From NCBI RefSeq assembly GCF_001730525.1, contig NZ_MDFN01000006.1:1-64000 (forward strand): DNA of 64,000 nt, in the 5' to 3' direction. Positions within the stretch are counted from its first letter, which is position 1; the number at the start of each line of letters is the position of its first letter. The notes beneath the pieces are model-generated. The model did no database searches. It had not been told where the DNA came from and saw nothing but the letters and a program-made list of their open reading frames with translations. Source of the stretch: Arcticibacter eurypsychrophilus. GTDB lineage: Bacteria > Bacteroidota > Bacteroidia > Sphingobacteriales > Sphingobacteriaceae. This document shows positions 41,581 through 63,810 of this stretch, in pieces. The position numbers were made by a program, and so were the translations under genes.

Positions 41581-41864
41581 TTTCCAAATTTGTTAAAAGA
41601 AAACGTATTTTTCGATTAAATAGTGCAATTAATACTATCACTCATTCAATTTATAATTAGAAACCGATATAATCCTACTTATAAGAATCCTTAATAACCA
41701 GTCATTCTATCATGCATGTTACTTCCTATTCAAATTAGTTACTAAATCCACAATTAAATTACAACACATTGTTTTTAAGCATATTAACAATCTTAAATTG
41801 AAATAAAAAAAAGTAGGAGTAACGATTCAGTGATGAACTTAATATTAACCTAACATTGGCATTT

Positions 41865-41872
41865 TATCTTTG
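41865..41872 (+). promoter_or_regulatory. ECF sigma gene -7 promoter element
   Basis: TATCTTTG, an exact TAnnTTTG match ending 4 nt before the sigma factor ATG, implying a leaderless transcript. No clear -33 element. The 280 bp upstream (41581-41864) hold no ORF. Confidence 0.45.
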
Positions 41873-41876
41873 TGCC

Positions 41877-42449
41877 ATGTCAATAAAGAAGTTTCGCCAG
41901 TATCAGGATGCCGATCTATATGCTTTAATTCAAAACAATAAGCAAGTGGCACTGGAAGTTATTTTTGAACGATACTACAAATCTCTTTGTTCATTTATTG
42001 TGATTTATGCAAAAGATAAGACTGTTTGTGAAGAAATAATTGCGGATCTCTTTATTAAAATTTGGAATAACAGAGCTTCAACTGAGATCAATAACTTAAA
42101 AAGCTACTTATTTATCGCTGCTAGAAATCTGGCTTTAAACCAAAAGAACAAAAAGATAGTTCCAATAGCATTTATGGAGACGCTCGATGCTTATGAGAAT
42201 ACGTCTAGTATGGACGACAATCCTTTTCAAATCATATCTAACCGGGAGTCTTATGATTCACTCATTTCCGTTATTGATCTTTTACCTGAACGTCAAAGAG
42301 AAGTATTATTAATGAGCCGTGTGGAGAATTTAGATAAAAACAAAATTGCCGAAATCCTTACCCTTTCAGTGAGAACAGTAGAAACGACCCTGTATTCGGC
42401 TGTTAAACAACTTCGCGCTACACTCACAAACCGTAACCCGATCCTTTAG
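41877..42449 (+). CDS. ECF RNA polymerase sigma factor
   Basis: A 190-residue sigma-70 factor of the Bacteroidota FecI-like group. Region 2: ALEVIFERYYKSLCSFIVIY, ADLFIKIWNNR and LKSYLFIAARNLALN; region 4: VIDLLPERQREVLLMSRVENL, KNKIAEILTLSVRTVETTLY and SAVKQLRATL. A TTG seven codons upstream extends the frame, but the ATG fits family starts. It is followed by a FecR-type anti-sigma gene and the SusC/SusD locus, so it is expected to switch that locus on when the SusC-like transporter senses its ligand. Confidence 0.94.
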   Translation: MSIKKFRQYQDADLYALIQNNKQVALEVIFERYYKSLCSFIVIYAKDKTVCEEIIADLFIKIWNNRASTEINNLKSYLFIAARNLALNQKNKKIVPIAFMETLDAYENTSSMDDNPFQIISNRESYDSLISVIDLLPERQREVLLMSRVENLDKNKIAEILTLSVRTVETTLYSAVKQLRATLTNRNPIL

Positions 42450-42550
42450 TACTTTATTTTCCTGTTGACAATTTCTTAATATAATATTAACCCACATGGT
42501 TACGTATTCCTTGCCCTGTTTACTGTCTTTATTTATAACAAGCAGTTTTA

Positions 42551-43558
42551 ATGGACGAATACAACTACCGTTTAATACAGGAATACTACGAGAAGAAAAT
42601 CAGTGAAGAGGGTCTTAAAGACCTTAGCGATTGGGTAGAGGCTGATCAGGAGAATCTTACAGCTTTTAGAGAAACCATGCACGTACTGGAGGCTTCAGCT
42701 AAATACCCTGCATCGTCTGCAGATCGGGATAAAGTATGGGGATCCATCAGTAGCCAGGTAAGCCGTAACAATCAAACCAAATGGCTTGCTTATGCTGCGG
42801 CAATACTTATACTGCTAACATTAAGCATGCTTTTGGGAGAGTCATTACTTAACCGGGATCAAAAGAAAGTTAAATACACCATAATAAGCAATTCAAATGG
42901 GAAGCAATCTAGAATTATGCTACCTGATAGTTCTATAGTTTATCTTCAGGCAGGAAGCAGTATTCGTTATAATAAAGCATTTAATGATCCGAAGGAAAGA
43001 ATAATATCTCTTCAGGGAGAGGCCTTCTTTGAGGTAATACATGATGAAAACCGACCCTTTATTGTACATAGCGGAGCAGTAAATACACTAGTTTTAGGAA
43101 CGTCATTTAACGTTAAAGCATTTAAAGCTGATAATAACGTAAAGGTTACCGTTCGATCCGGAAAAGTAGGGGTATCTATAACGGAGAAAGGCAAAGAAAA
43201 ATTCCTACAATATCTAGTTCCTGATCAACAGCTTTCTGTGAATCCAGAAAGTGGTAATTATTCTTTCAGCCATTTGGATGCAGCGTCTGAAAGCTCCTGG
43301 AAAGAAAACAAGATCACTTTTAACAATGCATCTTTACAAGAAATTGGACGATCTCTTGAGCGTTGGTACAATATCAAGGTCGTATTCAGTGATCCGAAGA
43401 ACACCGCATGTCAGTATACGGCTAAGTTCGACTTCATCCCTTTGCATCAGTTAATGGATATAATGGCTCAACTAACAGATTGCACCTACTCAATACAAAA
43501 CAATCATCTCATCATAAATAATAAAAAATGCAAGCAGGAGGATCCTATGTATCATTAA
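42551..43558 (+). CDS. FecR family anti-sigma factor
   Basis: A 335-residue inner-membrane regulator: cytoplasmic sigma-binding N-terminus (LIQEYYEKKISEEGLKDLSD, residues about 5-50), one membrane helix (WLAYAAAILILLTLSMLLG, about 78-96), a periplasmic FecR domain (LPDSSIVYLQAGSSIRYN, GEAFFEVIHDENRPFIVHSG, VLGTSFNVKAF) and a C-terminal DUF4974 STN-like domain (ITFNNASLQEIGRSLERWYN). It receives the signal from the STN domain of the SusC-like protein downstream and controls the sigma factor upstream. Confidence 0.95.
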   Translation: MDEYNYRLIQEYYEKKISEEGLKDLSDWVEADQENLTAFRETMHVLEASAKYPASSADRDKVWGSISSQVSRNNQTKWLAYAAAILILLTLSMLLGESLLNRDQKKVKYTIISNSNGKQSRIMLPDSSIVYLQAGSSIRYNKAFNDPKERIISLQGEAFFEVIHDENRPFIVHSGAVNTLVLGTSFNVKAFKADNNVKVTVRSGKVGVSITEKGKEKFLQYLVPDQQLSVNPESGNYSFSHLDAASESSWKENKITFNNASLQEIGRSLERWYNIKVVFSDPKNTACQYTAKFDFIPLHQLMDIMAQLTDCTYSIQNNHLIINNKKCKQEDPMYH

Positions 43559-43644
43559 ATATCTTTTAAGAACCAGGATTACGGGTAACCGTTGAAAAGT
43601 AAGTTTTAAATCAACAAGTATTAATTATTAAGCTATTAAATCCC

Positions 43645-46600
43645 ATGAATATAATTATTCGCCCGAAAAACATTGTTTCGACGAAGTTCATAAAAATGCT
43701 ATTATTAACCGGGGCTGCATTGTTTCAGTTAGTATTAGCCTCATTCACCGCCAAATCACAGCTAGTTTTAGAGAATAAAATAGTTTGGGGTGGAAATCAA
43801 ATCACACTTAACCGCGCGTTTACTGAAGTCGAAAAATTAAGTGGAATCACTTTTAACTATAATAATGCGATAGTAAATGACCAGAAACAGATTAATATAA
43901 GTCGTGCTGAGCGCACAGTAGCGGAAACAATCCAGCTGCTGATTAAAGGTACTTCTTTGTCCTACCAATTAGCCGGAGAGAAAAACGTACTAATTATCCG
44001 GGCACAGGCAAATGGAACTCTATCCGGAAAGGTTTTAGATGATAACGGCGAAGCGCTTCCTGGCGCATCTGTTAGAATCATCGAGCTGAATAAAAGTTTC
44101 ACAACCGATAAGAATGGATCTTATTCGATAAGTGTAGCACCCGGCACCTATACCGTAGAGGTTAAATTTATCTCATTTGAAACGAAAAGAGCTTCGGGGA
44201 TTAAGGTAACTGCCGATAAAAGCACACCACTTAATTTCTCAATGGTCACTGCGGCAAATCAACTGCAGGAGGTAATGGTGACAACCGCATTAGGAATTAA
44301 GCGGGAAGAAAAAGCACTTGGCTATTCAGCCACTGTGGTAACAGGAAAGCAACTTAATGAGTCATTATCCAATAACTGGACAGATGCTCTTTCGGGAAAA
44401 GTAGCCGGATTAAACCTGGTGCGTTCTAATGCAGGACCAGCAGGTTCGAATAAAATTATCTTAAGAGGAGAAAGTAATCTTACTGGTGACAATAATGCGC
44501 TTATCGTTGTTGATGGAGTAGTTATTAACAATGGTAGTGGAAGAGCTACCGGCAGTGGAAGCAATGCTTACCTGGATGGAGATTCGCCAGTTGATTTTGG
44601 TACAGGTTTGAATGACATCAATTCGGAAGACATTGAAAGTGTAACTGTATTGAAGGGACCTGGAGCAGCTGCCTTATATGGACAACGAGGTGCTAATGGT
44701 GCCATTATTATTACTACTAAATCTGGCGTAGCACGCAAAGGTTTAGGAGTTAGTTTTAATTCAAATTATTCACTTGAATCTATTTCAAGATGGCCTGAAT
44801 ACCAAAATAAATATGGACAGGGAGTAGAAGGTGCAAATTATTATTCATTTGGAGCTACAGCGGATGGAGCCTCTACCCGAAGTACCAGTTCAGCTTGGGG
44901 ACCCAAATTCGATGGGCAAGAGTACTTTCAATATGATCCTATTACACATACAGGAGGCACTACCCGAACTCCATGGGTTGCTTATCCGGATGACCGGCAA
45001 AACTTCTTTGAAACAGGCAAAACATTTACTAATAATTTAACGCTGGATGGCGGGACAGAGAATACAGCAGTTCGTTTCTCCTTTACGAATGTGGATAATA
45101 CCTGGATCATTCCCAACACCGGATATAACAGGAATTCTGTAGCACTATCTGCAAGTCAGAAAGTGAATGACAAATTGCAGATCAGCACCAAAATAAATTA
45201 CACGAACAAATGGAGTGATAACTTGCCTAACAGCGGGTATAACAACCAATCGATCATGTATTGGAATATGTTTTGGGAGCCTAATGCAAGTGTAGACTGG
45301 TTGAAAGAATACTGGTTGCCAGGTCAGGAAAACATTGCTCAAAGTTATCCTTTCAGTAGTTATCCCGATAACCCTTATCTCATCGCAAATGAGATGTTAA
45401 ACAAATCGGATCGCGATGGTTTAACAGGAAATATTCAGGCCACTTACAGCTTCACAAAGGAACTGAGTTTATTAGTTCGTACCTCAATGGATTTTGCAAG
45501 TGAAAGGCGTTCACAACAACGTCCGTATGATACTGAAAAATTCAGGAAGGGCATGTTCCGAACTCAAAACATCTTCTCAAAGGAAGCCAGCAGCGATTTC
45601 CTTTTACAGTATAAAAAGAAAATAAGCAAGGATGTGGATCTTTCCGTTTCTGCCGGTGGAAGTATGCTCACCAACAGATACACTACGGATAATAATAGGG
45701 CCGATTCATTGCTTTATCCAGGTGTATTCACACTTGCCAATAAAGCTGGAATACTCGATTCAAGGCCAGGAATCAGTGAATATAATATCAACAGTTTTTA
45801 TGGACTGGCAACGATGAGTTATAAAAATTATTTGTTTCTTGATATAACAGGGCGTAATGACTGGAACAGTGTATTGGCTACTGCGAACTCTACAAATAAT
45901 GTTTCCTTCTTCTATCCATCTGCTAACGCTAGTTTTATTCTTTCGGAGGCCTTCAAGCTCCCTAAATTTATATCGTTTGCCAAGATTAGAGCTTCAGCAT
46001 CAGGAGTAGGAAGCGGTGGCCAGACAAGCTATCAAACCGCTTTAACATATGATACAGCTCCAAACTTTCCTGGAGGTCTGCAAAACCCGTCTATGCTGGC
46101 GAATCTTAATTTGAAATCGCTTTTTACTACAGCATACGAAACAGGAGTAGATGTTCGCTTTCTTAATAATCGTCTGGGGTTTGATCTTGCACTTTATACT
46201 AGTGATACCAGAGATCAGATCCTGATGGCAAAAGCGGATGCCAGCTCGGGTTATGGTTCAGCGTTAGTTAATGGTGGACTAGTTCGAAATAAAGGGATTG
46301 AACTTGCCGCCAATGGCAGTCCTTTGAAATCGCAGCATGGTTTAAACTGGAACATGACCGCTACGTTCGCGGCTAATAGAAATAAAGTGATCTCTTTATC
46401 CGATTCCGTTCAACAACTTACTTTACAAACCGGACCAGGAAACAGGGGTGCTATTGTTGCTGCCGTTGGAGGCAGTATGGGTGATTTATATGGCCGGGGA
46501 TATCAACGCTCCCCAGAGGGAGAAATTGTGTATGAAAATGGTTATCCAAGGCTTACAGATGAGATGCTTTATTTAGGAAACACTACTCCCAAGTGGAGAG

Positions 46601-47124
46601 CAAGCATGGGCAATACATTCAAGTACAGACAGTTTAGCTTTAATTTTCTGATTGATGCACAATATGGTGCCGTGGCTTATTCCCTTACAGCCGCAGTACA
46701 CGCCGAACAAGGAAAAACTAAAAACACGCTTCCAGGGCGTTACAACGGAATTATCGGTAATGGGGTAATTCAAAATACAGATGGAACATATCGGAAGAAT
46801 GATGTGATCGCAAAAGAGATCTGGACCTATTACAATGCACACTACGGAAGAGATAACGTAGAGGGCAGCAGCTACTCCACAGATTTCGTCAAACTGAGAG
46901 AAGCCAGGTTAGACTATACTTTGACTCCTCAGTTGAGCAACAGACTTGGCTTACAACGTGTAAACATCGGCGTTTATGGTCGTAATTTATTGATGATTAC
47001 ACAATGGCCAGGATTTGATCCCGAATTCGGAACACTTAATAATGGCGATATCACTCAGGGCTTTGAACTAGGACAATTTCCAGTTACCCGGACCTTTGGA
47101 CTTAACTTAACTATAGCTCTTTAA
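43645..47124 (+). CDS. SusC-like TonB-dependent transducer
   Basis: An 1159-residue outer-membrane transporter with an N-terminal STN signalling domain (about residues 45-110, KIVWGGNQITLNRAFTEVEK, then LIKGTSLSYQL), carboxypeptidase-like domain (LSGKVLDDNGEALPGASVRI), TonB-box region (NQLQEVMVTTALGIKREEKAL), plug (VAGLNLVRSNAGPAGSNKII, LIVVDGVVINNGSG, ALYGQRGANGAIIITTKSG) and a barrel. The STN domain makes it a transducer that can act on the adjacent FecR/sigma pair. The ligand is not predictable from the transporter itself; the downstream enzymes suggest a phosphoester-containing compound. Confidence 0.95.
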   Translation: MNIIIRPKNIVSTKFIKMLLLTGAALFQLVLASFTAKSQLVLENKIVWGGNQITLNRAFTEVEKLSGITFNYNNAIVNDQKQINISRAERTVAETIQLLIKGTSLSYQLAGEKNVLIIRAQANGTLSGKVLDDNGEALPGASVRIIELNKSFTTDKNGSYSISVAPGTYTVEVKFISFETKRASGIKVTADKSTPLNFSMVTAANQLQEVMVTTALGIKREEKALGYSATVVTGKQLNESLSNNWTDALSGKVAGLNLVRSNAGPAGSNKIILRGESNLTGDNNALIVVDGVVINNGSGRATGSGSNAYLDGDSPVDFGTGLNDINSEDIESVTVLKGPGAAALYGQRGANGAIIITTKSGVARKGLGVSFNSNYSLESISRWPEYQNKYGQGVEGANYYSFGATADGASTRSTSSAWGPKFDGQEYFQYDPITHTGGTTRTPWVAYPDDRQNFFETGKTFTNNLTLDGGTENTAVRFSFTNVDNTWIIPNTGYNRNSVALSASQKVNDKLQISTKINYTNKWSDNLPNSGYNNQSIMYWNMFWEPNASVDWLKEYWLPGQENIAQSYPFSSYPDNPYLIANEMLNKSDRDGLTGNIQATYSFTKELSLLVRTSMDFASERRSQQRPYDTEKFRKGMFRTQNIFSKEASSDFLLQYKKKISKDVDLSVSAGGSMLTNRYTTDNNRADSLLYPGVFTLANKAGILDSRPGISEYNINSFYGLATMSYKNYLFLDITGRNDWNSVLATANSTNNVSFFYPSANASFILSEAFKLPKFISFAKIRASASGVGSGGQTSYQTALTYDTAPNFPGGLQNPSMLANLNLKSLFTTAYETGVDVRFLNNRLGFDLALYTSDTRDQILMAKADASSGYGSALVNGGLVRNKGIELAANGSPLKSQHGLNWNMTATFAANRNKVISLSDSVQQLTLQTGPGNRGAIVAAVGGSMGDLYGRGYQRSPEGEIVYENGYPRLTDEMLYLGNTTPKWRASMGNTFKYRQFSFNFLIDAQYGAVAYSLTAAVHAEQGKTKNTLPGRYNGIIGNGVIQNTDGTYRKNDVIAKEIWTYYNAHYGRDNVEGSSYSTDFVKLREARLDYTLTPQLSNRLGLQRVNIGVYGRNLLMITQWPGFDPEFGTLNNGDITQGFELGQFPVTRTFGLNLTIAL

Positions 47125-47136
47125 TCAAAAGGAAAG

Positions 47137-48582
47137 ATGAAAAGAAAAAAATATTCAATTTATGTATTTACCCTTGTGATGCTGTTAAGCGTAACGTCAT
47201 GCAAGGATGGATTTATTGAACTCAATACGAATCCAAATGCAGTAGACCATGCATTACCTCAAACTTTACTTGCCCCCGCCATTACTGATGTAGTAAGTGG
47301 CAATATGAACCGCAGCCAGCGTATTACAAATGAACTGATGCAGGTTACAGTTAACATGGGTGATTCGGATGGTAAAATATTCAGATATGACCTACTGAAA
47401 TCTGAGGCAGATTATTTGTACAACCTCTGGTATTTACAGTTGACAAATTTCAACGACATCTACGCTTCAGGACAAAACTTAAATAATCCGGCATTTATGG
47501 GAGTAGCCCGCATATGCCAGGTTTGGATCTACTCTCTTCTTACGGATACCTACGGAGATGTCCCCTATTTTAATGCGGGTAAAGCAAGGGAGGGTGTTAT
47601 GACTCCAGAATTCGATCAGCAGCAACTTATTTATGCAGATTTGTTTGCCAAACTCGAAGAGGCGAATACCTTACTAAAAACTGCTTCCAGTATTCCAGCT
47701 GCCAGTGATCCTGTGTTTGGAGGTGATCAGGTTAAATGGCGTAAATTCGGAAACTCACTTTATCTGCGTTTATTAATGCGGGTTTCTGCTAAGTCGGAAC
47801 TCAATACCATTGCAAAGATTAAAGAAATAGTGGATACTAATCCTGCAGGATATCCTGTAATGGGAAGCAATGATGATTCTGCCATATTAAGATGGACAGG
47901 TTCAGCTCCTTATGTATCACCCTTCTCGACATGGCGCCCCGCAGACTGGTACATCCCTAAATTAGCAAGCTTTTTTGTTGACAATCTGAATGAATGGAGT
48001 GACCCAAGAATTCAAAAATGGGGTACTTTGTATCAAGGCGAATATGCCGGTATTCCCAGTGGATATGCTTCCGGACAGGCACCTGATGGAAAATCATCAT
48101 TTCCTACTACTTTGCAAGTAGAACCTTTATTGGGTAATATCATGAACTATGCCGAGCTGCAGTTTATTCTTGCAGAGGCTGGTGCAAAAGGCTGGATCAG
48201 TAGCAATTCGGCTCAACGCTACTATGAAACAGGAGTAAACAGTGCAATCACATTATGGGGATATACATTGCCTGCTGGTTATTTAACCAATAAAAAAGCT
48301 AAATGGGACGATACCTACAGCACTGATAAGAAAATGGAGCTAATACTATTACAAAAATATTATGCGCTATTCTTCACAGATCTACAGTCATGGTTTGAGT
48401 ATCGTCGTACGGGTCATCCCATACTACCTAAAGGTGCTGGTTTACGGAATGGGGGAGTAATGCCTGCCAGACTTAATTATCCTTTATATGTACAAACGAT
48501 AAACGGCGATAATTATAATGCAGTAGTTGCGGCTCAAGGACCCGATACCTTCACTACAAACGTTTGGTGGCAAAAACCTTAA
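47137..48582 (+). CDS. SusD/RagB-type lipoprotein (SusD-like 2)
   Basis: A 481-residue lipoprotein with lipobox LLSVTSC, then KDGFIELNTNPNAV, the start pattern of the SusD-homologue group 2. Helical repeats and signature blocks follow: NLWYLQLTNFNDIYAS, ARICQVWIYSLLTDTYGDVP, WRKFGNSLYLRLLMRVS, MNYAELQFILAEAGAKGW and LILLQKYYALFFTDLQSWFE with YRRTGHP. It pairs with the SusC-like gene 12 bp upstream and would bind ligand at the surface. The conserved WRKFGNSL block is typical of SusDs not dedicated to a known glycan. Confidence 0.94.
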   Translation: MKRKKYSIYVFTLVMLLSVTSCKDGFIELNTNPNAVDHALPQTLLAPAITDVVSGNMNRSQRITNELMQVTVNMGDSDGKIFRYDLLKSEADYLYNLWYLQLTNFNDIYASGQNLNNPAFMGVARICQVWIYSLLTDTYGDVPYFNAGKAREGVMTPEFDQQQLIYADLFAKLEEANTLLKTASSIPAASDPVFGGDQVKWRKFGNSLYLRLLMRVSAKSELNTIAKIKEIVDTNPAGYPVMGSNDDSAILRWTGSAPYVSPFSTWRPADWYIPKLASFFVDNLNEWSDPRIQKWGTLYQGEYAGIPSGYASGQAPDGKSSFPTTLQVEPLLGNIMNYAELQFILAEAGAKGWISSNSAQRYYETGVNSAITLWGYTLPAGYLTNKKAKWDDTYSTDKKMELILLQKYYALFFTDLQSWFEYRRTGHPILPKGAGLRNGGVMPARLNYPLYVQTINGDNYNAVVAAQGPDTFTTNVWWQKP

Positions 48583-48610
48583 TCATTAATTGGTTTAAAA
48601 GTATTTTTTT

Positions 48611-50170
48611 ATGAAAACAAGATTTTTGTACATACTATTTAGTATAACAACATTTATATGGTCGGCTTGTGAAAAGCATAATTATGCCGAAGGAATATTA
48701 AGTCCTTTTATTTCACTTGAGGACGTCAGGAACATCTATAAAGGGACCGATATAACCCTAAACGAACAGAATTTGATTGGTGCAAGACAGGTTGTAGGGG
48801 TAGTTACTTCAGATGTTGATTCGGGTAATGTTCCAGCTGGCATAGTGATTCTTCAAAACAACAACAGGCAAAGAATCCGTGGAATATCGCTTAATTTAGG
48901 TGCATCAGCGTCTTCGTATCATCCGGGAGACTCCCTGGTAATCAGTATCAGAGGGGCAGTGTTAAAAAAGGTAGATGGTTCTATGCAGTTAACCGAGATT
49001 GCGGATACGGCTATTACTAAAATTTCTACCAAGAACCCTTTCACTATTCGAAACGTTTCAAGTTATACCATCAACCTTAATCCAAGAGAGTATGAGGGAA
49101 CGATGGTGAGCATTAAATCGGCAAGTGTCAGTCCATCCCCACTTCCTGGAGAACCTTATGCAGGTGACCGGTATTTGGTGAACGGTAACGATAGTGTGGC
49201 CATGCATACAGAAAGCTCTGCCCATTTTGCGCAGTCCTTTCTTCCTGGAGGAGCTACAGTTGCCGGGATTCTTTTTGTAAATCAAGATGCAGCAGATAAC
49301 ACTAAAGCATCCGTATGGCCACGTTACCTCTCCGACATCACTGATATAAGAGAAGCGATTGATCCGAACGCACCAGTTTTAGGAAAAAATGCAGTAGTCA
49401 TAACCGGTTATACCACAGATGTACTGGGAGCTGATGGAAACTATGAGTATTTTCAGTTTAAGGCGACAGAAAACATTGATTTTTCAAAAACACCAATGTC
49501 TGTTGTTACCTGTACCAATGCTGGTTCTGCTAGCCCATATCCTGGAGCTGCGCCTGGTGGCGGATGGGCTACAGGTGGCGGTAGAACTTATAAGTTTGAT
49601 CTTACTGAAGGCACTGTCTTAAAGGGAGAGTTCTTTTATGCAGGGGGAAGCAACAAGAAAATCAATGGTGCTAACTCTACTGATCTAAGTACAGCTAAAT
49701 GGATCAGATCTATCGCTTATGTCACTACAGACGGCGATGGTTATGGCAGCAAGAGTTCAGGATTACTTCCTAATAGTGGAAATGCCGGAGGGATTGCTAT
49801 TTTTGGCGGGACCAACATAACCGTGAAATCCATTCCTATGGATGCTGTATTTTACGGAGGAACAGGTACCACAACTATTGTGGATGTAGTTAATGGAATA
49901 GGCTACAGGATTCCAGACAATGACCACTATCATGCTGTAGATCCAGAAACCGCAGTAGAACAACCGTTCTTCTATCAAGGCAACAATCTATACAGGATCC
50001 CCTATTTATCACCAACCGTTCAGGGTATATTTATAAAACTTGGGGGTACTTTTAATACTAAAACCGATACTTGGGAAACGGCAAGAGCATATACATTTTA
50101 TGTCATGACAACAACGGCTGCATTATCTGAAATAGAGACAGATCAGGTCACTCAACTGTCCGGCAATTAA
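48611..50170 (+). CDS. DUF5689 domain lipoprotein
   Basis: A 519-residue lipoprotein (TTFIWSAC followed by EKHNYAEG). Residues about 30-245 form the DUF5689 domain, an OB-fold-like module: VVGVVTSDVDSGNVPAGIVI, RIRGISLNLGASASSYHPGD, LVISIRGAVLKKVDGSMQLT. The second half is a large beta-rich domain with Gly/Thr-rich stretches (GGGWATGGGRTYKFDLTEGT). DUF5689 proteins typically sit directly after SusC/SusD pairs as extra surface components. No catalytic motif is seen. It ends 11 bp before a hairpin terminator. Confidence 0.85.
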   Translation: MKTRFLYILFSITTFIWSACEKHNYAEGILSPFISLEDVRNIYKGTDITLNEQNLIGARQVVGVVTSDVDSGNVPAGIVILQNNNRQRIRGISLNLGASASSYHPGDSLVISIRGAVLKKVDGSMQLTEIADTAITKISTKNPFTIRNVSSYTINLNPREYEGTMVSIKSASVSPSPLPGEPYAGDRYLVNGNDSVAMHTESSAHFAQSFLPGGATVAGILFVNQDAADNTKASVWPRYLSDITDIREAIDPNAPVLGKNAVVITGYTTDVLGADGNYEYFQFKATENIDFSKTPMSVVTCTNAGSASPYPGAAPGGGWATGGGRTYKFDLTEGTVLKGEFFYAGGSNKKINGANSTDLSTAKWIRSIAYVTTDGDGYGSKSSGLLPNSGNAGGIAIFGGTNITVKSIPMDAVFYGGTGTTTIVDVVNGIGYRIPDNDHYHAVDPETAVEQPFFYQGNNLYRIPYLSPTVQGIFIKLGGTFNTKTDTWETARAYTFYVMTTTAALSEIETDQVTQLSGN

Positions 50171-50180
50171 AACTTAAACC

Positions 50181-50208
50181 AGCAGATAGCTCTTAAGGGC
50201 TATCTGCT
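50181..50208 (+). terminator. Hairpin terminator after DUF5689 gene
   Basis: AGCAGATAGC and GCTATCTGCT pair with a TCTTAAGG loop and a short TTT tract. It separates the transporter genes from the phospholipase-D-like gene 29 bp later and may attenuate read-through. Confidence 0.65.
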
Positions 50209-50236
50209 TTACTAAATTGCTGATCGACACATTAAA

Positions 50237-51421
50237 ATGATTCTAATTAAAAATCTCCTAGGCCTGATTCTTCTATTGACTCTTGTGTCATGCAGTAAAA
50301 GCAAGCAGGACTCTCTTGAAGGCCTGCCTCTTGACATCTCATTCCCATCGGCATACTTTACTGACCCAGATAAAATTGCTAGTCAGTCGGCTTCCCCTGT
50401 CATCATGGATAAGCTGATCGCTATGATTAATGCCAGTCCTGCACATTCCTCTATTTACCTTTCTATTTTTGGATTTGATCATTCAGGTGTTATTGCATCT
50501 TTGAAAAAGGCATCCAAGCGAGGAGTTGATTTGCACCTGCTGGTAGATAATAGTATAGACGAAACTCGTTTACAGAATGCAAAGACTATTAGTACAATTA
50601 AAGGATTTCTTACGGATGGATCTGAGTTGGTAATTGTAGATAATGATTGCACTGCATCCGCAATTAATCATAACAAGTTTGTGCTCTTTTCATCTTTAAA
50701 TACACTTGAGGGACTGAAGCATCAGGTCATTTTTCAAACTTCGCACAATTTCACAATAGATGACAGTAAAAAGATTCAGGATGCTGTAGTCGTATCTGAT
50801 AGCGGTATATATGAGGCCTATTTCAATTACTGGCAAGACATAAGCAAAAAAGCGGTTAGTGGAATGACCAATTTTTATTACCGTGAATACCAGAATGAAC
50901 TGACTGGAATTAGCGCCTATTATTTCCCAAAAAGGCGAAACGGGGTCTCCTATGGGGATGATACCATCATTGAAATCTTAAATGGAATATCGAAGCCTTC
51001 GGGTGCAATAATCAAAGTAGGGATGTCTGATTGGACATCATCGCGCTTGAATATAGTCAACAAGCTGGGTGACCTGCTCAATGCGGGAGCACATATAGAA
51101 GTAATTGCTAAAAACAAGGCTGATATAGAAATCTTAAACGGTTTAGAAGGATTAAGGAAAAAAGGGGCTTACATTAAAATTTACAATATAGTGAATAGCA
51201 ACCAGCAAAAGGTTAACATTCATGCTAAGTTCTTAATGATAAAAGGAGAATGGAAAGGAAAGCAATGTACAGTTCTGGCTACAGGTAGTCATAACTATAC
51301 TCAAAATGCGCTTAGAAATAACAATGAAACCTTGCTTCTATTTAAAAATAACACGGTACTTTATAACGCATATACCATTTGGTATGATGCCCTGAAAAAA
51401 TTACCTGGTTCGTCAGAATAA
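50237..51421 (+). CDS. Phospholipase D-like lipoprotein
   Basis: A 394-residue lipoprotein (LLTLVSC followed by SKSKQD) with two PLD-type half domains. HxK motifs are His145/Lys147 in INHNKFVLF and His329/Lys331 in NIHAKFLMI, each followed by a Ser-His-Asn block (QTSHNF at 167-172 and GSHNYTQNA at 350-358). The Asp that follows in the canonical HxKx4D is Ser151 in the first copy and Lys336 in the second. Members hydrolyse phosphodiester bonds in phospholipids or nucleic acids. Location in a SusC/SusD locus suggests cleavage of an extracellular phosphodiester substrate before uptake. Confidence 0.85.
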   Translation: MILIKNLLGLILLLTLVSCSKSKQDSLEGLPLDISFPSAYFTDPDKIASQSASPVIMDKLIAMINASPAHSSIYLSIFGFDHSGVIASLKKASKRGVDLHLLVDNSIDETRLQNAKTISTIKGFLTDGSELVIVDNDCTASAINHNKFVLFSSLNTLEGLKHQVIFQTSHNFTIDDSKKIQDAVVVSDSGIYEAYFNYWQDISKKAVSGMTNFYYREYQNELTGISAYYFPKRRNGVSYGDDTIIEILNGISKPSGAIIKVGMSDWTSSRLNIVNKLGDLLNAGAHIEVIAKNKADIEILNGLEGLRKKGAYIKIYNIVNSNQQKVNIHAKFLMIKGEWKGKQCTVLATGSHNYTQNALRNNNETLLLFKNNTVLYNAYTIWYDALKKLPGSSE

Positions 51422-51433
51422 TAAATAATTGAT

Positions 51434-52927
51434 ATGCATAACAGAAGATCATTTTTAAAAAACCTTGGTGCCGCAGGTACGTTACTGGCACTTCCCTCTG
51501 CTATACTACAGGCAGAACCACTAGTAAAAAAGGAACCACTGGACCTCTCTACCTTAACTATCCGCGGACATGTACACACCAAAGGAAAAGGCATTTCAGG
51601 AGTGTCTGTAACAGATGGTTTTAATATAACACAGACTGACAATAAAGGCAATTATGAGTTATTGAGCAACAAAACTGCCGAATTTATCTATATCAGTATC
51701 CCTGCGGGTTTTGCTATTAATCATAAAAAGGGAATAGCTGATTTTTATCAGCCACTCGATAAAAGTAGCACTAAATTTAATGCTGATTTTTCGCTAAACC
51801 CATTAGGTAAAAGTGACCTGAACCATAACTTTGTAGTATGGGCTGACCCTCAAATTATCTCTAAATCAGATGCTGAGCAGTTGAAGACAAGGACAGCACC
51901 CGATTTGCTACAACTCGTTAAATCATATCCCCAGGATACACTTTTCCATGGTATTGGTTGTGGTGACCTGGTTTGGGATCATTTCGAACTTTTCGAAGAC
52001 TATAGAACTGCTGTTGAAACCACTGGAATCCCCTTTTACAACGTCATAGGTAACCATGATATGGATCTCGATGCACGTACAGATGAATTATCAGCACAAA
52101 CTTTTAAAAAGCAGTTTGGCCCCACCTATTACTCCTTTAACAGAGGGGAGATTCATTACGTGGTATTGGATGATGTTTTTTTTATTGGAACAGCTAAAAA
52201 ATATATCGGCTATCTCACTGAACAGCAATTGCAATGGCTAGAACAGGACCTTGCCTTCGTTAAAAAAGGAACAACCTTAGTATTATCACTGCATATCCCT
52301 ACTAACACAGGATCGGTAAGACGCAATAATCTGAAAGAAGATGAGCTAGGCGGGGTGGTTTCCAATAGAGAGCGTCTGTATAAAATAATGGAAGGATATA
52401 CGGTTCATATCATGTCAGGACATACTCACATGAACGAAAAGTGGACTAAAGGAAACATTACCGAACATGTACATGGAACAGTTTGCGGGGCATGGTGGAC
52501 AGGTCCTGTTTGCAGTGATGGAAGTCCTGAAGGTTATGCCGTATATGAAGTTCAAGGAAGTCAGATTCAATGGTTTTATAAATCCATTGGAAAGCCAAGG
52601 GACCATCAGGTAAAAGTTTATCCAAAGGGCTTTGTTAAAGATTCACCAGATGAAATTATAGCGAACGTATGGAACTGGGACGCTAATTGGAAAATTGAAT
52701 GGTTGGAAGATGGTGTATTAAAGGGAGAGATGGAAAGACGTACAGCCCTGGATCCTCTGGCCGAAAAATTGTACAATGGGCCTCAGCTTCCTAAAAAGCA
52801 TAAATGGATTGATCCCACATTAACAGACCACTTATTTTTTGCTAAACCATCATCATCAGCCAAACTTATAGAAATAAAAGCAACAGATCGTTTTGGAAAA
52901 ATTTATGTAGAAAAGCTTTCTCTCTAA
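51434..52927 (+). CDS. Tat-exported metallophosphoesterase
   Basis: A 497-residue calcineurin-like phosphoesterase. The N-terminus MHNRRSFLKNLGAAGTLLAL is a twin-arginine signal (Arg4-Arg5). An N-terminal Ig-like module (TIRGHVHTKGKGISGVSV) precedes the catalytic domain, with metal-ligand motifs VVWADPQI, GCGDLVWDH, NVIGNHDMD, LSLHIPT and MSGHTHMNEKW, and a C-terminal metallophosphoesterase-associated domain (ALDPLAEKLYNGPQLPKKHKW). It would cleave phosphate mono- or diesters in the periplasm or at the surface. It is 12 bp after the PLD-like gene, so the two are one unit. Confidence 0.93.
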   Translation: MHNRRSFLKNLGAAGTLLALPSAILQAEPLVKKEPLDLSTLTIRGHVHTKGKGISGVSVTDGFNITQTDNKGNYELLSNKTAEFIYISIPAGFAINHKKGIADFYQPLDKSSTKFNADFSLNPLGKSDLNHNFVVWADPQIISKSDAEQLKTRTAPDLLQLVKSYPQDTLFHGIGCGDLVWDHFELFEDYRTAVETTGIPFYNVIGNHDMDLDARTDELSAQTFKKQFGPTYYSFNRGEIHYVVLDDVFFIGTAKKYIGYLTEQQLQWLEQDLAFVKKGTTLVLSLHIPTNTGSVRRNNLKEDELGGVVSNRERLYKIMEGYTVHIMSGHTHMNEKWTKGNITEHVHGTVCGAWWTGPVCSDGSPEGYAVYEVQGSQIQWFYKSIGKPRDHQVKVYPKGFVKDSPDEIIANVWNWDANWKIEWLEDGVLKGEMERRTALDPLAEKLYNGPQLPKKHKWIDPTLTDHLFFAKPSSSAKLIEIKATDRFGKIYVEKLSL

Positions 52928-61269: not shown

Positions 61270-63810
61270 CTATTCTTTTTTAGCCAAATTCATTATCTCC
61301 ATATTATCATAAGAAGCCAATGCGTCGTATGACCTCAAACCTATAGTCCCTTTACTAAACTCGTTATCGTTTATTTTCAATACCGGCTCCTGTTCATCAT
61401 CCAGAAAAACACAGATATCAGGTCCCTTCGCTTCCACCTTTAGCTTGTACTTCTTTTCAGGTTCCACTTTAAGTGATGACGAAGCAAGCAAGACATACTT
61501 TTGTTCCGATGACTTACCAATTTCAATCCTGTTTAGAGCAGGATTAATGCCAACGTAGTAACCATTGTATAAATCAGGACCTATTGCCGGCTTTGATACA
61601 CGAAACACAATCCCAGCATTCCCCTGCTTTCCAGGAGTCATATCAATTTCAAAAACAAAGTCAGCCAGGCTTACAGCACTATTGATCACCTTAGAGCCAT
61701 GAATCCCTGCCCCCCATGAACCCTTGTTAGAGGCTGCATGCAAGGCACCATCTTGAGTAAACCATCCCCCGCCATACCAAACCCAACCTTCCATATTATT
61801 GGCATCAAAGTTTTCAGTAAAGGATTTCTGAACTACAACAGGTCCATTAATTTGAGGAAAATTAGAAATCCTTATATTTTCAGATCCAAATGGAGTCAGC
61901 GTAACTTCTTCTATTGGTTCAGTTGAAGTCAACGGTCCATAAGGCACATCAAAAGCAGAAATGCCATTATAAGACATGGTCCAGTCCTTAAGCTTTTGCG
62001 CTTTTACCTTTATCTTAACAGGAGTACTTTTTTGCACAAAAGGATTTTCAGGCATTACGCCCTTCTCTACTATAAAAGATTTTTGTACGTTCTTCTTATC
62101 GAAAATCAAACCATAGTTCCAATCGTTCACAGGGAAAACTTCATAATCATGAAAACCCTTTACCGGATGATCTTTTATGGACACATATTTTGCATCCATT
62201 TGCAGAGCATATACAAGAGGACCACGCTCAATACTCACTGAATTATGCACCTGTGGCGATACTTTTATTTCCATGGGAAAGTTTAAGATCAACTCATCTT
62301 TATCATTCCAACGCCGGTTAATCAAAACAATCCGGTTAGATGCCAACCCTTTTTGTGCTTTCCCATTAATGCGGATAGATGGTGTTTTGCACCATGCAGG
62401 AATCCGTAGACGCAACGGAAACTCTGCAGACTTCTCTAATGAAATCTTTAATTTAATCTGTTCATTAAACGGATAGTCCGTTTCTTCCACGATTTTTATA
62501 GGAACCTGATCTGCAACTACTGCATTTACTTCAACAGGGGCATACGCAATAATAGCCAAACCCTTATCGGGAGTTGCCGCCCAGCTATTTTTTACAAAAT
62601 AAGGCCAGCCCATGTGCATGTTGTACCTGCAGCAGCCCATACCCGAATAAGGACTCAATAATAATCCTTCGGGATAATCTTCATCAAACCCATTGTGCCC
62701 ATACTTGCATTGAATCTGGTTAGGCAGCGTATAATACAAATGCTCCTTCAGATCTCTGCTAAACTGAGCAGGCAAAGTATTAAAAGCAATCTTTTCCAGC
62801 CGATCCCCTATGGAAGGATCTTCAATTATTCGGGCGGCAGTTTCCAAACTTTGCATCCATTCTACAACCGTACACGTTTCCACCCCTTGAATCTCACTTT
62901 TACCCGCCAGGAATTCTGTACCCGATGCGATACCTGAAGACTGACCATGCTCCTTAATTAAATGATCTATTCCTTTTTGAAAGGCCTCTTTGTAAGATTT
63001 ATCACCGCTGCGCTGATAGTATATCGCAGGAAACTTCAATGCCTGACCCACACTTACCGCATGCTTAGTATGAAAATCATCACCAAAATGGTAAAATAAA
63101 TTATTCGTATAAATATCTTTCCAGGGATAAGCCTGATCCTTCAGCAAGTCTGCCAGTTTCAACAAATATGCATCACCCGTTTTATTATAGAGCCATAGCA
63201 CAATTTCAATGTTATCGCCAGTTCTTGATTTACTCCATTCTTTCAAAGGATCCAATGGAAGATTTTCAAGCTGATACTTAAAATATTTACTAAAAAAGGG
63301 AATCACCCGCTTGTCACCTGTAGCCTCATAATAGTTTTTTACCGCATACAACATCGGCATCCTTGGCCACCAGTCCTTCATCTTCGAAGGACCAATCAAA
63401 CCATTAGCCTGCTGATTTTCCAGTGTCCATGTTATCCACTTCTCAGCCTTTAATTTTAAACTGGCATCATCCAATGTATAAGCCAGTGCGACAAGGCCTT
63501 TAACGTAATAAGGAACCCTTTCCCAACTATTCCCTGTACCGCCAAGCCAATCCGAATTCGCTCCTAAGTTATCCGCTTCCTGATATAATTCCTCAGCATG
63601 ACCTGTAAATCCGGCCGCTTGCAACTCAAGCTGTTTTAGCAACCATCCCTTTGCTTTGATACTTCCTAAAGGAAGTTCAGCATAGGTACTACTGACCAAA
63701 GGCTGCCGGGAAAAAACATAATCATAGATAGGGGAAGTTTGAGCGCATAACTTACCCGCCGAATTACATATTAATGGCAACAAAATGGCTATTTTTAATA
63801 TCTTTCTCAT
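61270..63810 (-). CDS. GH127-like beta-L-arabinofuranosidase with LamG-like domain
   Basis: An 846-residue exported enzyme (signal peptide ends LCAQ). Residues about 40-400 are the alpha/alpha-barrel of GH127/DUF1680 type: WLGGTGNSWERVPYYVKGLV, GTEFLAGKSEIQGVETC, MGCCRYNMHMGWP. The catalytic Cys and zinc site would use Glu311, Cys313, Cys393 and Cys394, with Glu299 as the extra ligand, matching the Glu/Cys pattern of the family. Residues about 420-610 are beta-sandwich domains and the last about 200 a concanavalin-like domain (FDANNMEGWVWYGGGWFT, GNAGIVFRVSKP). Substrate may be an arabinose-containing glycan. Next to another CAZyme fragment. Confidence 0.8.
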   Translation of the reverse strand: MRKILKIAILLPLICNSAGKLCAQTSPIYDYVFSRQPLVSSTYAELPLGSIKAKGWLLKQLELQAAGFTGHAEELYQEADNLGANSDWLGGTGNSWERVPYYVKGLVALAYTLDDASLKLKAEKWITWTLENQQANGLIGPSKMKDWWPRMPMLYAVKNYYEATGDKRVIPFFSKYFKYQLENLPLDPLKEWSKSRTGDNIEIVLWLYNKTGDAYLLKLADLLKDQAYPWKDIYTNNLFYHFGDDFHTKHAVSVGQALKFPAIYYQRSGDKSYKEAFQKGIDHLIKEHGQSSGIASGTEFLAGKSEIQGVETCTVVEWMQSLETAARIIEDPSIGDRLEKIAFNTLPAQFSRDLKEHLYYTLPNQIQCKYGHNGFDEDYPEGLLLSPYSGMGCCRYNMHMGWPYFVKNSWAATPDKGLAIIAYAPVEVNAVVADQVPIKIVEETDYPFNEQIKLKISLEKSAEFPLRLRIPAWCKTPSIRINGKAQKGLASNRIVLINRRWNDKDELILNFPMEIKVSPQVHNSVSIERGPLVYALQMDAKYVSIKDHPVKGFHDYEVFPVNDWNYGLIFDKKNVQKSFIVEKGVMPENPFVQKSTPVKIKVKAQKLKDWTMSYNGISAFDVPYGPLTSTEPIEEVTLTPFGSENIRISNFPQINGPVVVQKSFTENFDANNMEGWVWYGGGWFTQDGALHAASNKGSWGAGIHGSKVINSAVSLADFVFEIDMTPGKQGNAGIVFRVSKPAIGPDLYNGYYVGINPALNRIEIGKSSEQKYVLLASSSLKVEPEKKYKLKVEAKGPDICVFLDDEQEPVLKINDNEFSKGTIGLRSYDALASYDNMEIMNLAKKE

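What the first reader, a model, noticed from the sequence alone, without database searches (positions are those of the whole stretch)
41877..52927. SusC/SusD locus with phosphodiesterase-type enzymes instead of glycosidases
ECF sigma, FecR, an STN-bearing SusC, SusD, a DUF5689 lipoprotein, a PLD-like lipoprotein and a Tat-exported metallophosphoesterase lie in one direction with short gaps. SusC/SusD loci usually carry CAZymes; here both enzymes act on phosphate esters. Inference: the locus imports a phosphorylated polymer or lipid-derived compound (teichoic-acid, phospholipid head group or nucleic acid), and the SusC-STN senses its own substrate through FecR. The PLD motifs lack the usual Asp, which could mean an altered substrate.
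Basis: partly seen in the sequence, partly recalled or inferred. Interest (0 to 1): 0.6.

Follow-up and report, generated by a model that had tools for sequence, protein, structure and literature searches.

The report
Outer-membrane glycerophosphodiester uptake locus
A bacterium carries a nutrient-uptake gene cluster that pairs an outer-membrane importer with phosphate-ester-cutting enzymes, and in many relatives the same importer sits near genes for using glycerol phosphate, which suggests that it takes up fragments of phospholipids or of Gram-positive cell-wall polymers rather than sugars.

Summary
In detail: ECF sigma, FecR, SusC, SusD, DUF5689 lipoprotein, PLD-like lipoprotein and Tat-type metallophosphoesterase (MPE) run in one direction at 41856-52927. 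The linkage is conserved. The DUF5689 marker of the SusC-SusD-DUF5689 trio matches 246 of 400 genomes of the order, some weakly. Near the trio lie MPE in 17 of 20 drawn loci against 2 of 40 other SusD loci, and GDPD in 11 of 20 against 2 of 40. All 17 PLD relatives found in 400 genomes lie beside, or about 13 kb from, a SusC/SusD/DUF5689 locus. GlpT, GlpF, GlpK or GlpD genes lie near 31 of 80 named and 5 of 20 drawn trios, against 2 of 40 controls. Best reading: an importer for glycerophosphodiesters from phospholipid head groups or glycerol-phosphate teichoic acids. An ECF/FecR version alternates with a glp-embedded one. In the window's genome GlpD and GlpT were not found, so phosphorus is likelier than glycerol carbon as the gain there. 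The concept has precedent (Flavobacterium PusCD); the DUF5689, glp-linked form looks like a new variant. Substrate and activity are untested.

The parts
41856..42449 (+). ECF sigma factor (in-frame ATG at 41877)
   Evidence: Sigma70_r4_2 E 5e-12, Sigma70_r2 E 1e-5; TIGR02985 122.5 bits, just below its cut-off of 126.4
42551..43558 (+). FecR-type anti-sigma regulator
   Evidence: FecR E 3e-16, FecR_C E 8e-17
43645..47124 (+). SusC-type TonB-dependent transporter with N-terminal STN-like extension (about residues 69-119)
   Evidence: TIGR04056 526 bits, above cut-off; STN below cut-off here; an N-terminal extension was found in 41 of 41 FecR-adjacent relatives, STN in 23 of 42
47137..48582 (+). 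SusD-like surface lipoprotein, SusD-like_2 family
   Evidence: PF12771 E 9e-105; lipobox read by eye
48611..50170 (+). DUF5689 lipoprotein: two OB-fold domains (32-141, 143-252) and a C-terminal beta domain (260-511)
   Evidence: PF18942 E 1.5e-19; model pLDDT 89, pTM 0.54; OB-fold matches Z up to 10.7, C-terminal match to 4q1z Z 9.8
50181..50208 (.). 12-pair hairpin between the DUF5689 and PLD genes; role unknown
50237..51421 (+). PLD-like lipoprotein with both HxK and S-x-N motifs but without the usual Asp
   Evidence: PLDc_2 E 1.7e-22, two stretches; motifs; lipobox read by eye
51434..52927 (+). Tat-type exported calcineurin-like metallophosphoesterase (MetallophosN-Metallophos-MetallophosC)
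   Evidence: RR (residues 4-5) invariant in 31 of 31 aligned relatives incl. window; nearest folds Rv0805 and the glycerophosphodiesterase GpdQ

Best explanation
The locus is a SusCD-type outer-membrane import system for glycerophosphodiesters: deacylated phospholipid head groups, or glycerol-phosphate oligomers from teichoic acids. The SusD and DUF5689 lipoproteins bind the substrate at the cell surface and SusC imports it. The PLD-like lipoprotein trims it at the surface or in the periplasm. The Tat-exported MPE then cleaves the phosphodiester in the periplasm. Transcription is set by the ECF sigma factor, held by FecR and released when a loaded SusC signals through its STN domain. In many relatives the same importer instead lies among glycerol-3-phosphate genes (GlpR, D, K, F, T and GDPD) and lacks FecR and the STN extension. 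GlpD and GlpT were not found in the window's genome, so the gain there is more likely phosphate, or the non-glycerol part, than glycerol as carbon. Shown: gene content, conserved linkage, alternation of the two versions, folds. Inferred: substrate, enzyme activities, signalling, place of each enzyme.
For: Short conserved gaps: SusC-SusD median 11 bp, 90 of 95 within 150 bp; SusD-DUF5689 median 16 bp, 94 of 95. MPE 17/20 and GDPD 11/20 drawn trio loci against 2/40 and 2/40 control SusD loci, Fisher p 4e-10 and 3e-5; 80 named loci: MPE 62, GDPD 33, GlpD 27, GlpK 25, GlpR 24, GlpF 22, GlpT 17, GDSL lipase 17. Any of GlpT/F/K/D: 31/80 named, 5/20 drawn, 2/40 controls; with GDPD added: 41/80, 11/20, 3/40. 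One GlpT and one GlpK tested pass the equivalog cut-offs TIGR00712 and TIGR01311. Of 113 proteins just downstream of DUF5689, 54 match MetallophosC, 25 GDPD, 5 GDSL lipase, 3 PF04185, 2 PLD. The window's SusD lies in a 34-row clade (SH-aLRT 100) with 11 glp-type loci. The MPE model's best PDB folds are Rv0805 and GpdQ. FecR next to SusC goes with an N-terminal extension in 41 of 41; FecR only 40, glp only 33, both 1, neither 20. GlpD in 2 of 11 tested genomes with a FecR-type trio and 13 of 13 others.
Against: The window locus has no glp or GDPD gene and the genome search found no GlpD, no GlpT above cut-off and only 27%-identical FGGY kinases, so the substrate is read from relatives. In the drawn set the single glp genes are only weakly enriched (GlpT 5/20 to 2/40, p 0.036; GlpK, GlpD, GlpR 4/20 to 1/40, p 0.038; GlpF 2/20 to 1/40, p 0.26); the stronger numbers come from the named set, which was chosen by similarity. 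The tandem OB folds of DUF5689 best resemble nucleic-acid-binding proteins, and a DUF5689 protein belongs to the pair reported essential for transformation in Riemerella (PMC8459023, passages). Exo_endo_phos genes occur near L057, L058 and L141. Rv0805, the best MPE fold match, is a cyclic nucleotide phosphodiesterase (recalled) and the fold is widely shared. A phylogeny-aware test of the FecR/glp alternation is borderline (median p 0.06). No expression or biochemistry.
Confidence: 0.55

Rival explanations
1. A general phosphate-scavenging SusCD system of the PusCD type, induced by phosphate starvation, with no special preference for glycerol-containing phosphodiesters.
For: F. johnsoniae PUSI has SusCD, two periplasmic phosphodiesterases and an ECF sigma, induced by phosphate depletion (PMC8115612, one section and passages read). 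GlpD and GlpT were not found in the window genome.
Against: GlpT, F, K or D lie near 31 of 80 named and 5 of 20 drawn trio loci, and with GDPD 41 of 80 and 11 of 20, against 2 and 3 of 40 controls, in several genera. PusD1 and PusD2 are listed as pf07980/pf14322, not PF12771.
Confidence: 0.22
2. The locus imports extracellular nucleic acid: DUF5689 binds DNA, PLD acts as a NucT-like nuclease, and the MPE acts as a nucleotide phosphodiesterase.
For: Tandem OB folds like HIN-200, RPA and Teb1. Weak PLD similarity to NucT and Nuc. A DUF5689 protein beside an outer-membrane protein is reported essential for transformation in Riemerella (PMC8459023, passages). Exo_endo_phos genes, a family that includes nucleases, near L057, L058, L141. 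MPE fold nearest Rv0805.
Against: No nuclease or nucleotidase among the 25 of 47 families shown downstream of DUF5689; Exo_endo_phos in 1 of 80 named and 0 of 20 drawn loci, while glycerol-phosphate genes are common. OB folds also bind oligosaccharides (recalled).
Confidence: 0.13
3. A glycan PUL whose target carries phosphodiester links (phosphoglycan or sugar-1-phosphate polymer), with the glycosidases encoded elsewhere.
For: Sister SusC/SusD/DUF5689/PLD loci carry NAGPA phosphodiester glycosidases (L208, L209) and a PF01663 phosphodiesterase (L208). Three trio loci of the window's genus carry GH89 NAGLU (L046, L057, L058), and the tested gene of one Mucilaginibacter locus (L092) is an alpha-L-fucosidase family member.
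Against: No glycosidase in the window locus and none among the 25 families shown downstream. NAGLU in 0 of 80 named and 0 of 20 drawn loci.
Confidence: 0.1

Closest known systems
Phosphate utilisation systems PUSI-PUSIV / PusCD of Flavobacterium johnsoniae (Lidbury et al., PMC8115612)
   Same: SusCD-like pair with phosphodiesterases or phosphatases instead of CAZymes; ECF sigma in PUSI; FecR and sigma in PUSIII; proposed import of organic phosphorus
   Different: PusD1 and PusD2 are pf07980/pf14322, here PF12771; no DUF5689 partner or glp linkage in the passages read; phosphate induction shown there, unknown here
Glycerol-3-phosphate / glycerophosphodiester utilisation (GlpQ-type GDPD, GlpT, GlpD, GlpK)
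   Same: Part of the relatives carry these genes near the same SusC-SusD-DUF5689 trio
   Different: The window locus has none of them and uses a calcineurin-like phosphoesterase; an outer-membrane SusCD step is not part of the classical system (recalled)
GpdQ glycerophosphodiesterase (3d03) and Rv0805 (2hyp)
   Same: Calcineurin-like fold, best PDB matches of the MPE model, E 1.8e-9 and 6.5e-12
   Different: 17-19% identity to GpdQ; extra N- and C-terminal domains; DxQ instead of DxH (DxH recalled) in the first metal motif, Gln invariant in 31 of 31 aligned
Riemerella anatipestifer transformation pair RA0C_RS04915/RS04920 (PMC8459023)
   Same: DUF5689 surface protein encoded beside an outer-membrane protein with a CarboxypepD_reg domain
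   Different: There a DUF5017 domain, and no phosphoesterase beside the pair is mentioned in the passages read; its role is in DNA transformation
Classical Sus-type PULs
   Same: SusC, SusD, extra surface lipoprotein, ECF/FecR control in some (recalled)
   Different: No CAZyme in the window locus

Membership tests
PusCD phosphate utilisation system | SusC/SusD-like pair | tested here: met
PusCD phosphate utilisation system | Co-located phosphodiesterase or phosphatase instead of CAZymes | tested here: met
   Pfam of all seven proteins, (activity inferred from family); conserved in relatives
PusCD phosphate utilisation system | Induction by phosphate depletion | not testable with these tools
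   needs expression data
PusCD phosphate utilisation system | Same SusD subfamily as PusD1/PusD2 (pf07980/pf14322); not strictly defining, since PusD is called polyphyletic in PMC8115612 | tested here: not met
   SusD is PF12771, E 9e-105; no PF07980 or PF14322 match at E 0.01
Classical polysaccharide utilisation locus | Glycoside hydrolase or lyase in the locus | tested here: not met
   none among the seven proteins; the nearest seen is a GH127-like gene at 61270-63810, over 8 kb away on the other strand
glp-embedded SusC-SusD-DUF5689 system (defined here) | Orthologous SusC, SusD and DUF5689 in order | tested here: met
glp-embedded SusC-SusD-DUF5689 system (defined here) | glp genes within about 10 kb | tested here: not met
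   no glp or GDPD family among the neighbours scanned between 29.8 and 63.8 kb; GlpD and GlpT not found in the genome, its one GDPD is on another contig; GlpF was not searched genome-wide
PLD superfamily (HKD) | Two HxK motifs with S-x-N downstream | tested here: met
PLD superfamily (HKD) | Asp of HxKxxxxD (recalled motif) | tested here: not met
   Ser in motif 1, Lys in motif 2
GpdQ-type glycerophosphodiesterase | Fold and metal-ligand motifs | tested here: inconclusive
   fold match E 1.8e-9; GD, GNHD, H and GHTH kept, DxQ for DxH; substrate untested
Natural-transformation DNA uptake pair | DUF5689 protein beside an outer-membrane protein, with a role in transformation | not testable with these tools
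   domain shared (PMC8459023 passages); role needs an experiment

The most novel reading that the evidence does not exclude
A widespread Bacteroidota system imports oligomers of glycerol-phosphate polymers (wall or lipoteichoic acid of Gram-positive neighbours) through SusCD. DUF5689 acts as a tandem OB-fold clamp on the polyanionic sugar-phosphate backbone, the PLD and MPE act as outer and periplasmic teichoicases, and two exchangeable controls exist: the GlpR regulon or ECF/FecR/STN.
Probability: 0.2. Interest if true: 0.75.

Novelty: new variant of a known kind. Interest (0 to 1): 0.52.

Why it matters
It gives a testable substrate class for a common but unassigned SusCD family: its DUF5689 marker matches 246 of 400 sampled genomes of the order. 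It would extend SusCD transport from glycans to glycerophosphodiesters, and it offers a natural experiment in which one importer appears under two kinds of control. If the teichoic-acid form is right, it would describe how such Bacteroidota feed on Gram-positive cell walls. If the lipid form is right, it would describe how they recover phosphorus from dead membranes.

Tried and rejected
PDB sequence search with the MPE and PLD gave only weak hits. Paper searches for SusD with GlpT or glycerol-3-phosphate, SusCD with glycerophosphodiester phosphodiesterase, SusC with teichoic acid, PusCD follow-ups, and glycerophosphodiester with SusD listed no paper that appeared to describe this linkage. I judged from listings (the listed part only) and abstract starts, except the papers named in the report; the one listed hit with both GlpT and SusD (PMC10197871, passages) mentions GlpT only in a reference title. 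BT_1938/DUF4876 papers were not read.

Considered and rejected: separate transcription from a terminator at 50181 (hairpin real, not listed as terminator-like on the plus strand); an altered PLD substrate peculiar to this strain (Ser in motif 1 is a family trait; the Lys in motif 2 is the window's own); pure chance linkage.

Limits of the counts: the 80 named loci are the best 80 of 228 by similarity to the window. SusC was recognised in 76 and SusD in 79 of them, and in 19 and 20 of the 20 drawn; some of the misses are at contig ends. The 20 drawn loci come mostly from the high-scoring part. The 40 controls are high-scoring PF12771 loci picked by me, leaving out those beside a trio match; one (L175) is short. 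L167 and L168, which supply the 2 MPE hits among controls, carry SusCD 39-44% identical to the window's. About 40 of the 246 genomes have much weaker best matches (E above about 1e-110, my count of the listing), which may be other DUF5689 proteins. One search used 94 of 100 trio loci (6 without one clear SusC ORF were dropped); two of its extension values (L107, cut by the contig end, and L129, a cut ORF) are artefacts counted as short. One search used 96 rows, window included. One search used 113 of 145 downstream proteins (the rest left out for size limits); 15 of 100 loci had none. The 24 genomes were picked by me from those with a read trio locus; G076 and ten others were not tested. Two weak MFS hits counted as GlpT (L141 at 30%, L206 at 34% identity) are probably not GlpT. 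Fisher values are not corrected for relatedness.
Full report
What is there. Seven genes in one direction at 41856-52927 encode an ECF sigma factor, FecR, SusC, SusD, a DUF5689 lipoprotein, a PLD-like lipoprotein and a metallophosphoesterase, MPE. They are followed by a PepSY_TM protein and an opposite-strand hybrid two-component protein. The STN domain of SusC is weak in the window alone, but as a class it is clear.

Is the linkage conserved? Yes. A DUF5689 alignment from the first relatives (A1) matches 246 of 400 genomes of the order at E <= 0.001; about 40 of these are much weaker matches and may be other DUF5689 proteins (my count). I read 100 neighbourhoods of clear matches, 80 named and 20 drawn. 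SusD was recognised in 79 and 20 of them, SusC in 76 and 19, with short gaps: median 11 bp and 16 bp. Against 40 other SusD loci, the MPE is enriched 17/20 to 2/40, GDPD 11/20 to 2/40, GDSL lipase 9/20 to 2/40. The two control loci with an MPE carry distant relatives of the same SusCD. One of them (L167) has a full glp set, and the other (L168, its MPE confirmed) lies at the site of the window's locus in a species of the same genus.

The PLD family is rare: 17 matches at E <= 1e-20 in 16 of 400 genomes. All 17 lie with SusC/SusD and a DUF5689 protein. Nine are with the window-type trio: G000, G001, G069, G163 and one in G090 close to it, and G023, G214, G254 and G328 about 13 kb away across glp genes. 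Six are with a sister type (DUF5689 28-32% identical), one is in G277 (27%), and one is in G024, where the DUF5689 match (40%) covers 63% of that protein. But the PLD lies within about 10 kb in only 3 of the 100 trio neighbourhoods, so it is accessory.

What the neighbours say about the substrate. Near the trio, part of the relatives carry GlpT (one tested, above the TIGR00712 cut-off), GlpK (one tested, above TIGR01311), a MIP-family GlpF, GlpD, a DeoR-type regulator (called GlpR here by its company; the one tested matches AgaR best, below cut-off), GDPD and GDSL lipase. At least one of GlpT, F, K or D is present in 31 of 80 named, 5 of 20 drawn and 2 of 40 control loci; with GDPD added, in 41, 11 and 3. 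In the drawn set the single glp genes are only weakly enriched (p 0.036 to 0.26), so the glp argument rests more on the named set and on GDPD. Of 113 proteins just downstream of DUF5689, 54 match MetallophosC, 25 GDPD, 5 GDSL lipase, 3 PF04185 phosphoesterase and 2 PLD. GDPD enzymes of the GlpQ type release glycerol-3-phosphate from polyglycerol-phosphate wall teichoic acid and hydrolyse phospholipid head-group diesters (PMC7086022, passages). A calcineurin-like phosphoesterase, PhoD, degrades teichoic acid (PMC11188070, passages). So the neighbours point to glycerophosphodiesters but do not separate lipid from teichoic acid. GDSL lipases and PF04185 enzymes lean to lipid. NAGPA phosphodiester glycosidases in sister loci and GH89 in three loci of the window's genus lean to cell-wall glycopolymers. 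Exo_endo_phos genes near L057, L058 and L141 fit nucleic acid or other phosphodiesters.

Folds. The MPE model (pLDDT 85) has Rv0805 and then the glycerophosphodiesterase GpdQ as nearest PDB folds. This agrees with the reading, but the fold is shared by many phosphoesterases. The DUF5689 model (pLDDT 89, pTM 0.54) shows two OB folds and a C-terminal domain like that of BT_1938. Its OB-fold relatives are mostly nucleic-acid binders. With the Riemerella transformation result (PMC8459023, passages) this is the best evidence for the DNA rival. OB folds also bind oligosaccharides (recalled), so a polyanionic sugar-phosphate backbone is a reasonable common denominator (inference).

Two versions of the locus. 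FecR next to SusC goes with an N-terminal extension of SusC in 41 of 41 loci, and its absence with a short N-terminus in 48 of 53. FecR and glp genes hardly ever occur together: 40 FecR only, 33 glp only, 1 both, 20 neither, of 94. On the SusD tree FecR needs at least 10 changes and glp at least 14. In 8 independent pairs that differ in FecR, glp goes the other way in 4.7 and the same way in 0.0 on average, with a median p of 0.06: suggestive, not decisive. In 24 genomes picked by me, GlpD (PF16901) was found in 2 of 11 with a FecR-type trio (G099, G109) and 13 of 13 others; GlpT above cut-off in 0 of 11 and 8 of 13. One of those 13, G001, also carries a second trio with FecR (L057). Seven of the 11 FecR genomes belong to one genus group, so relatedness is a confounder. 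In the window's genome (93 contigs, 99.99% complete as given) neither was found; it has one GDPD on another contig and only 27%-identical FGGY kinases. In such genomes the gain is more likely phosphate or the non-glycerol part (inference).

Comparison with the known. SusCD with phosphoesterases instead of CAZymes is known as PusCD in Flavobacterium, with phosphate-starvation induction shown (PMC8115612; abstract start, one section in full and passages). This locus works like a PUS. Membership cannot be claimed, since induction is untested and the SusD family differs. In the searches I saw no listing that describes the DUF5689 trio or its glp linkage. That covers open-licence PMC papers only, judged mostly from titles and abstract starts of the listed part.

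Verdict.

Noticed in passing
L168 (G005:C32:26700-46500); window 34190-58768: In another species of the same genus the same chromosomal site (same flanking gene sizes as secA, purD and thioredoxin, and on the other side the PepSY and hybrid two-component genes) holds a different SusC-SusD-MPE set (44, 43, 55% identical) in the opposite direction, without DUF5689, PLD, ECF or FecR matches.
   Followed up: partly
L067, L070, L071, L074, L075, L076, L087, L148, L158, L163, L164: In 11 of 100 trio loci, the named ones all Mucilaginibacter, the MPE gene lies between the ECF sigma and FecR genes instead of downstream of DUF5689.
   Followed up: no
L208-L212, L214: Sister SusC/SusD/DUF5689 loci with large PLD proteins (593-1170 aa). 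The two of which neighbours were scanned by Pfam carry NAGPA phosphodiester glycosidases (L208, L209); L208 also has a GFO/IDH/MocA oxidoreductase and a PF01663 phosphodiesterase.
   Followed up: partly
L167 (G025:C89): A full glp set with GDPD, MPE, GDSL lipase and GlpT surrounds a SusC/SusD pair 44/39% identical to the window's, but no DUF5689 gene was recognised; the third partner seems replaced or lost.
   Followed up: no
L186, L199, L206: Three control loci share a different set: SusC/SusD 36-42% identical to the window's, Exo_endo_phos genes, a GxDLY-type GDSL gene and ECF/FecR matches.
   Followed up: no
G030 (L022, L032, L035-L045): One genome has 14 matches to the DUF5689 protein, several in a row on contig C22, an unexplained expansion.
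   Followed up: no
L127: A MAG labelled Williamsia (Actinomycetota) carries a Bacteroidota-type SusC/SusD/DUF5689 locus; probably a mislabelled or mixed bin.
   Followed up: no
L046, L057, L058: Three trio loci of the window's genus have GH89 alpha-N-acetylglucosaminidase (NAGLU) genes downstream; none of the 80 named or 20 drawn loci has one.
   Followed up: partly
window 50181-50208: Strong 12-pair hairpin between the DUF5689 and PLD genes (z -4.6); could be a processing or stability element.
   Followed up: partly
window 61270-63810: A protein with GH127-like and 3-keto-disaccharide hydrolase domains on the minus strand, not part of the locus.
   Followed up: no
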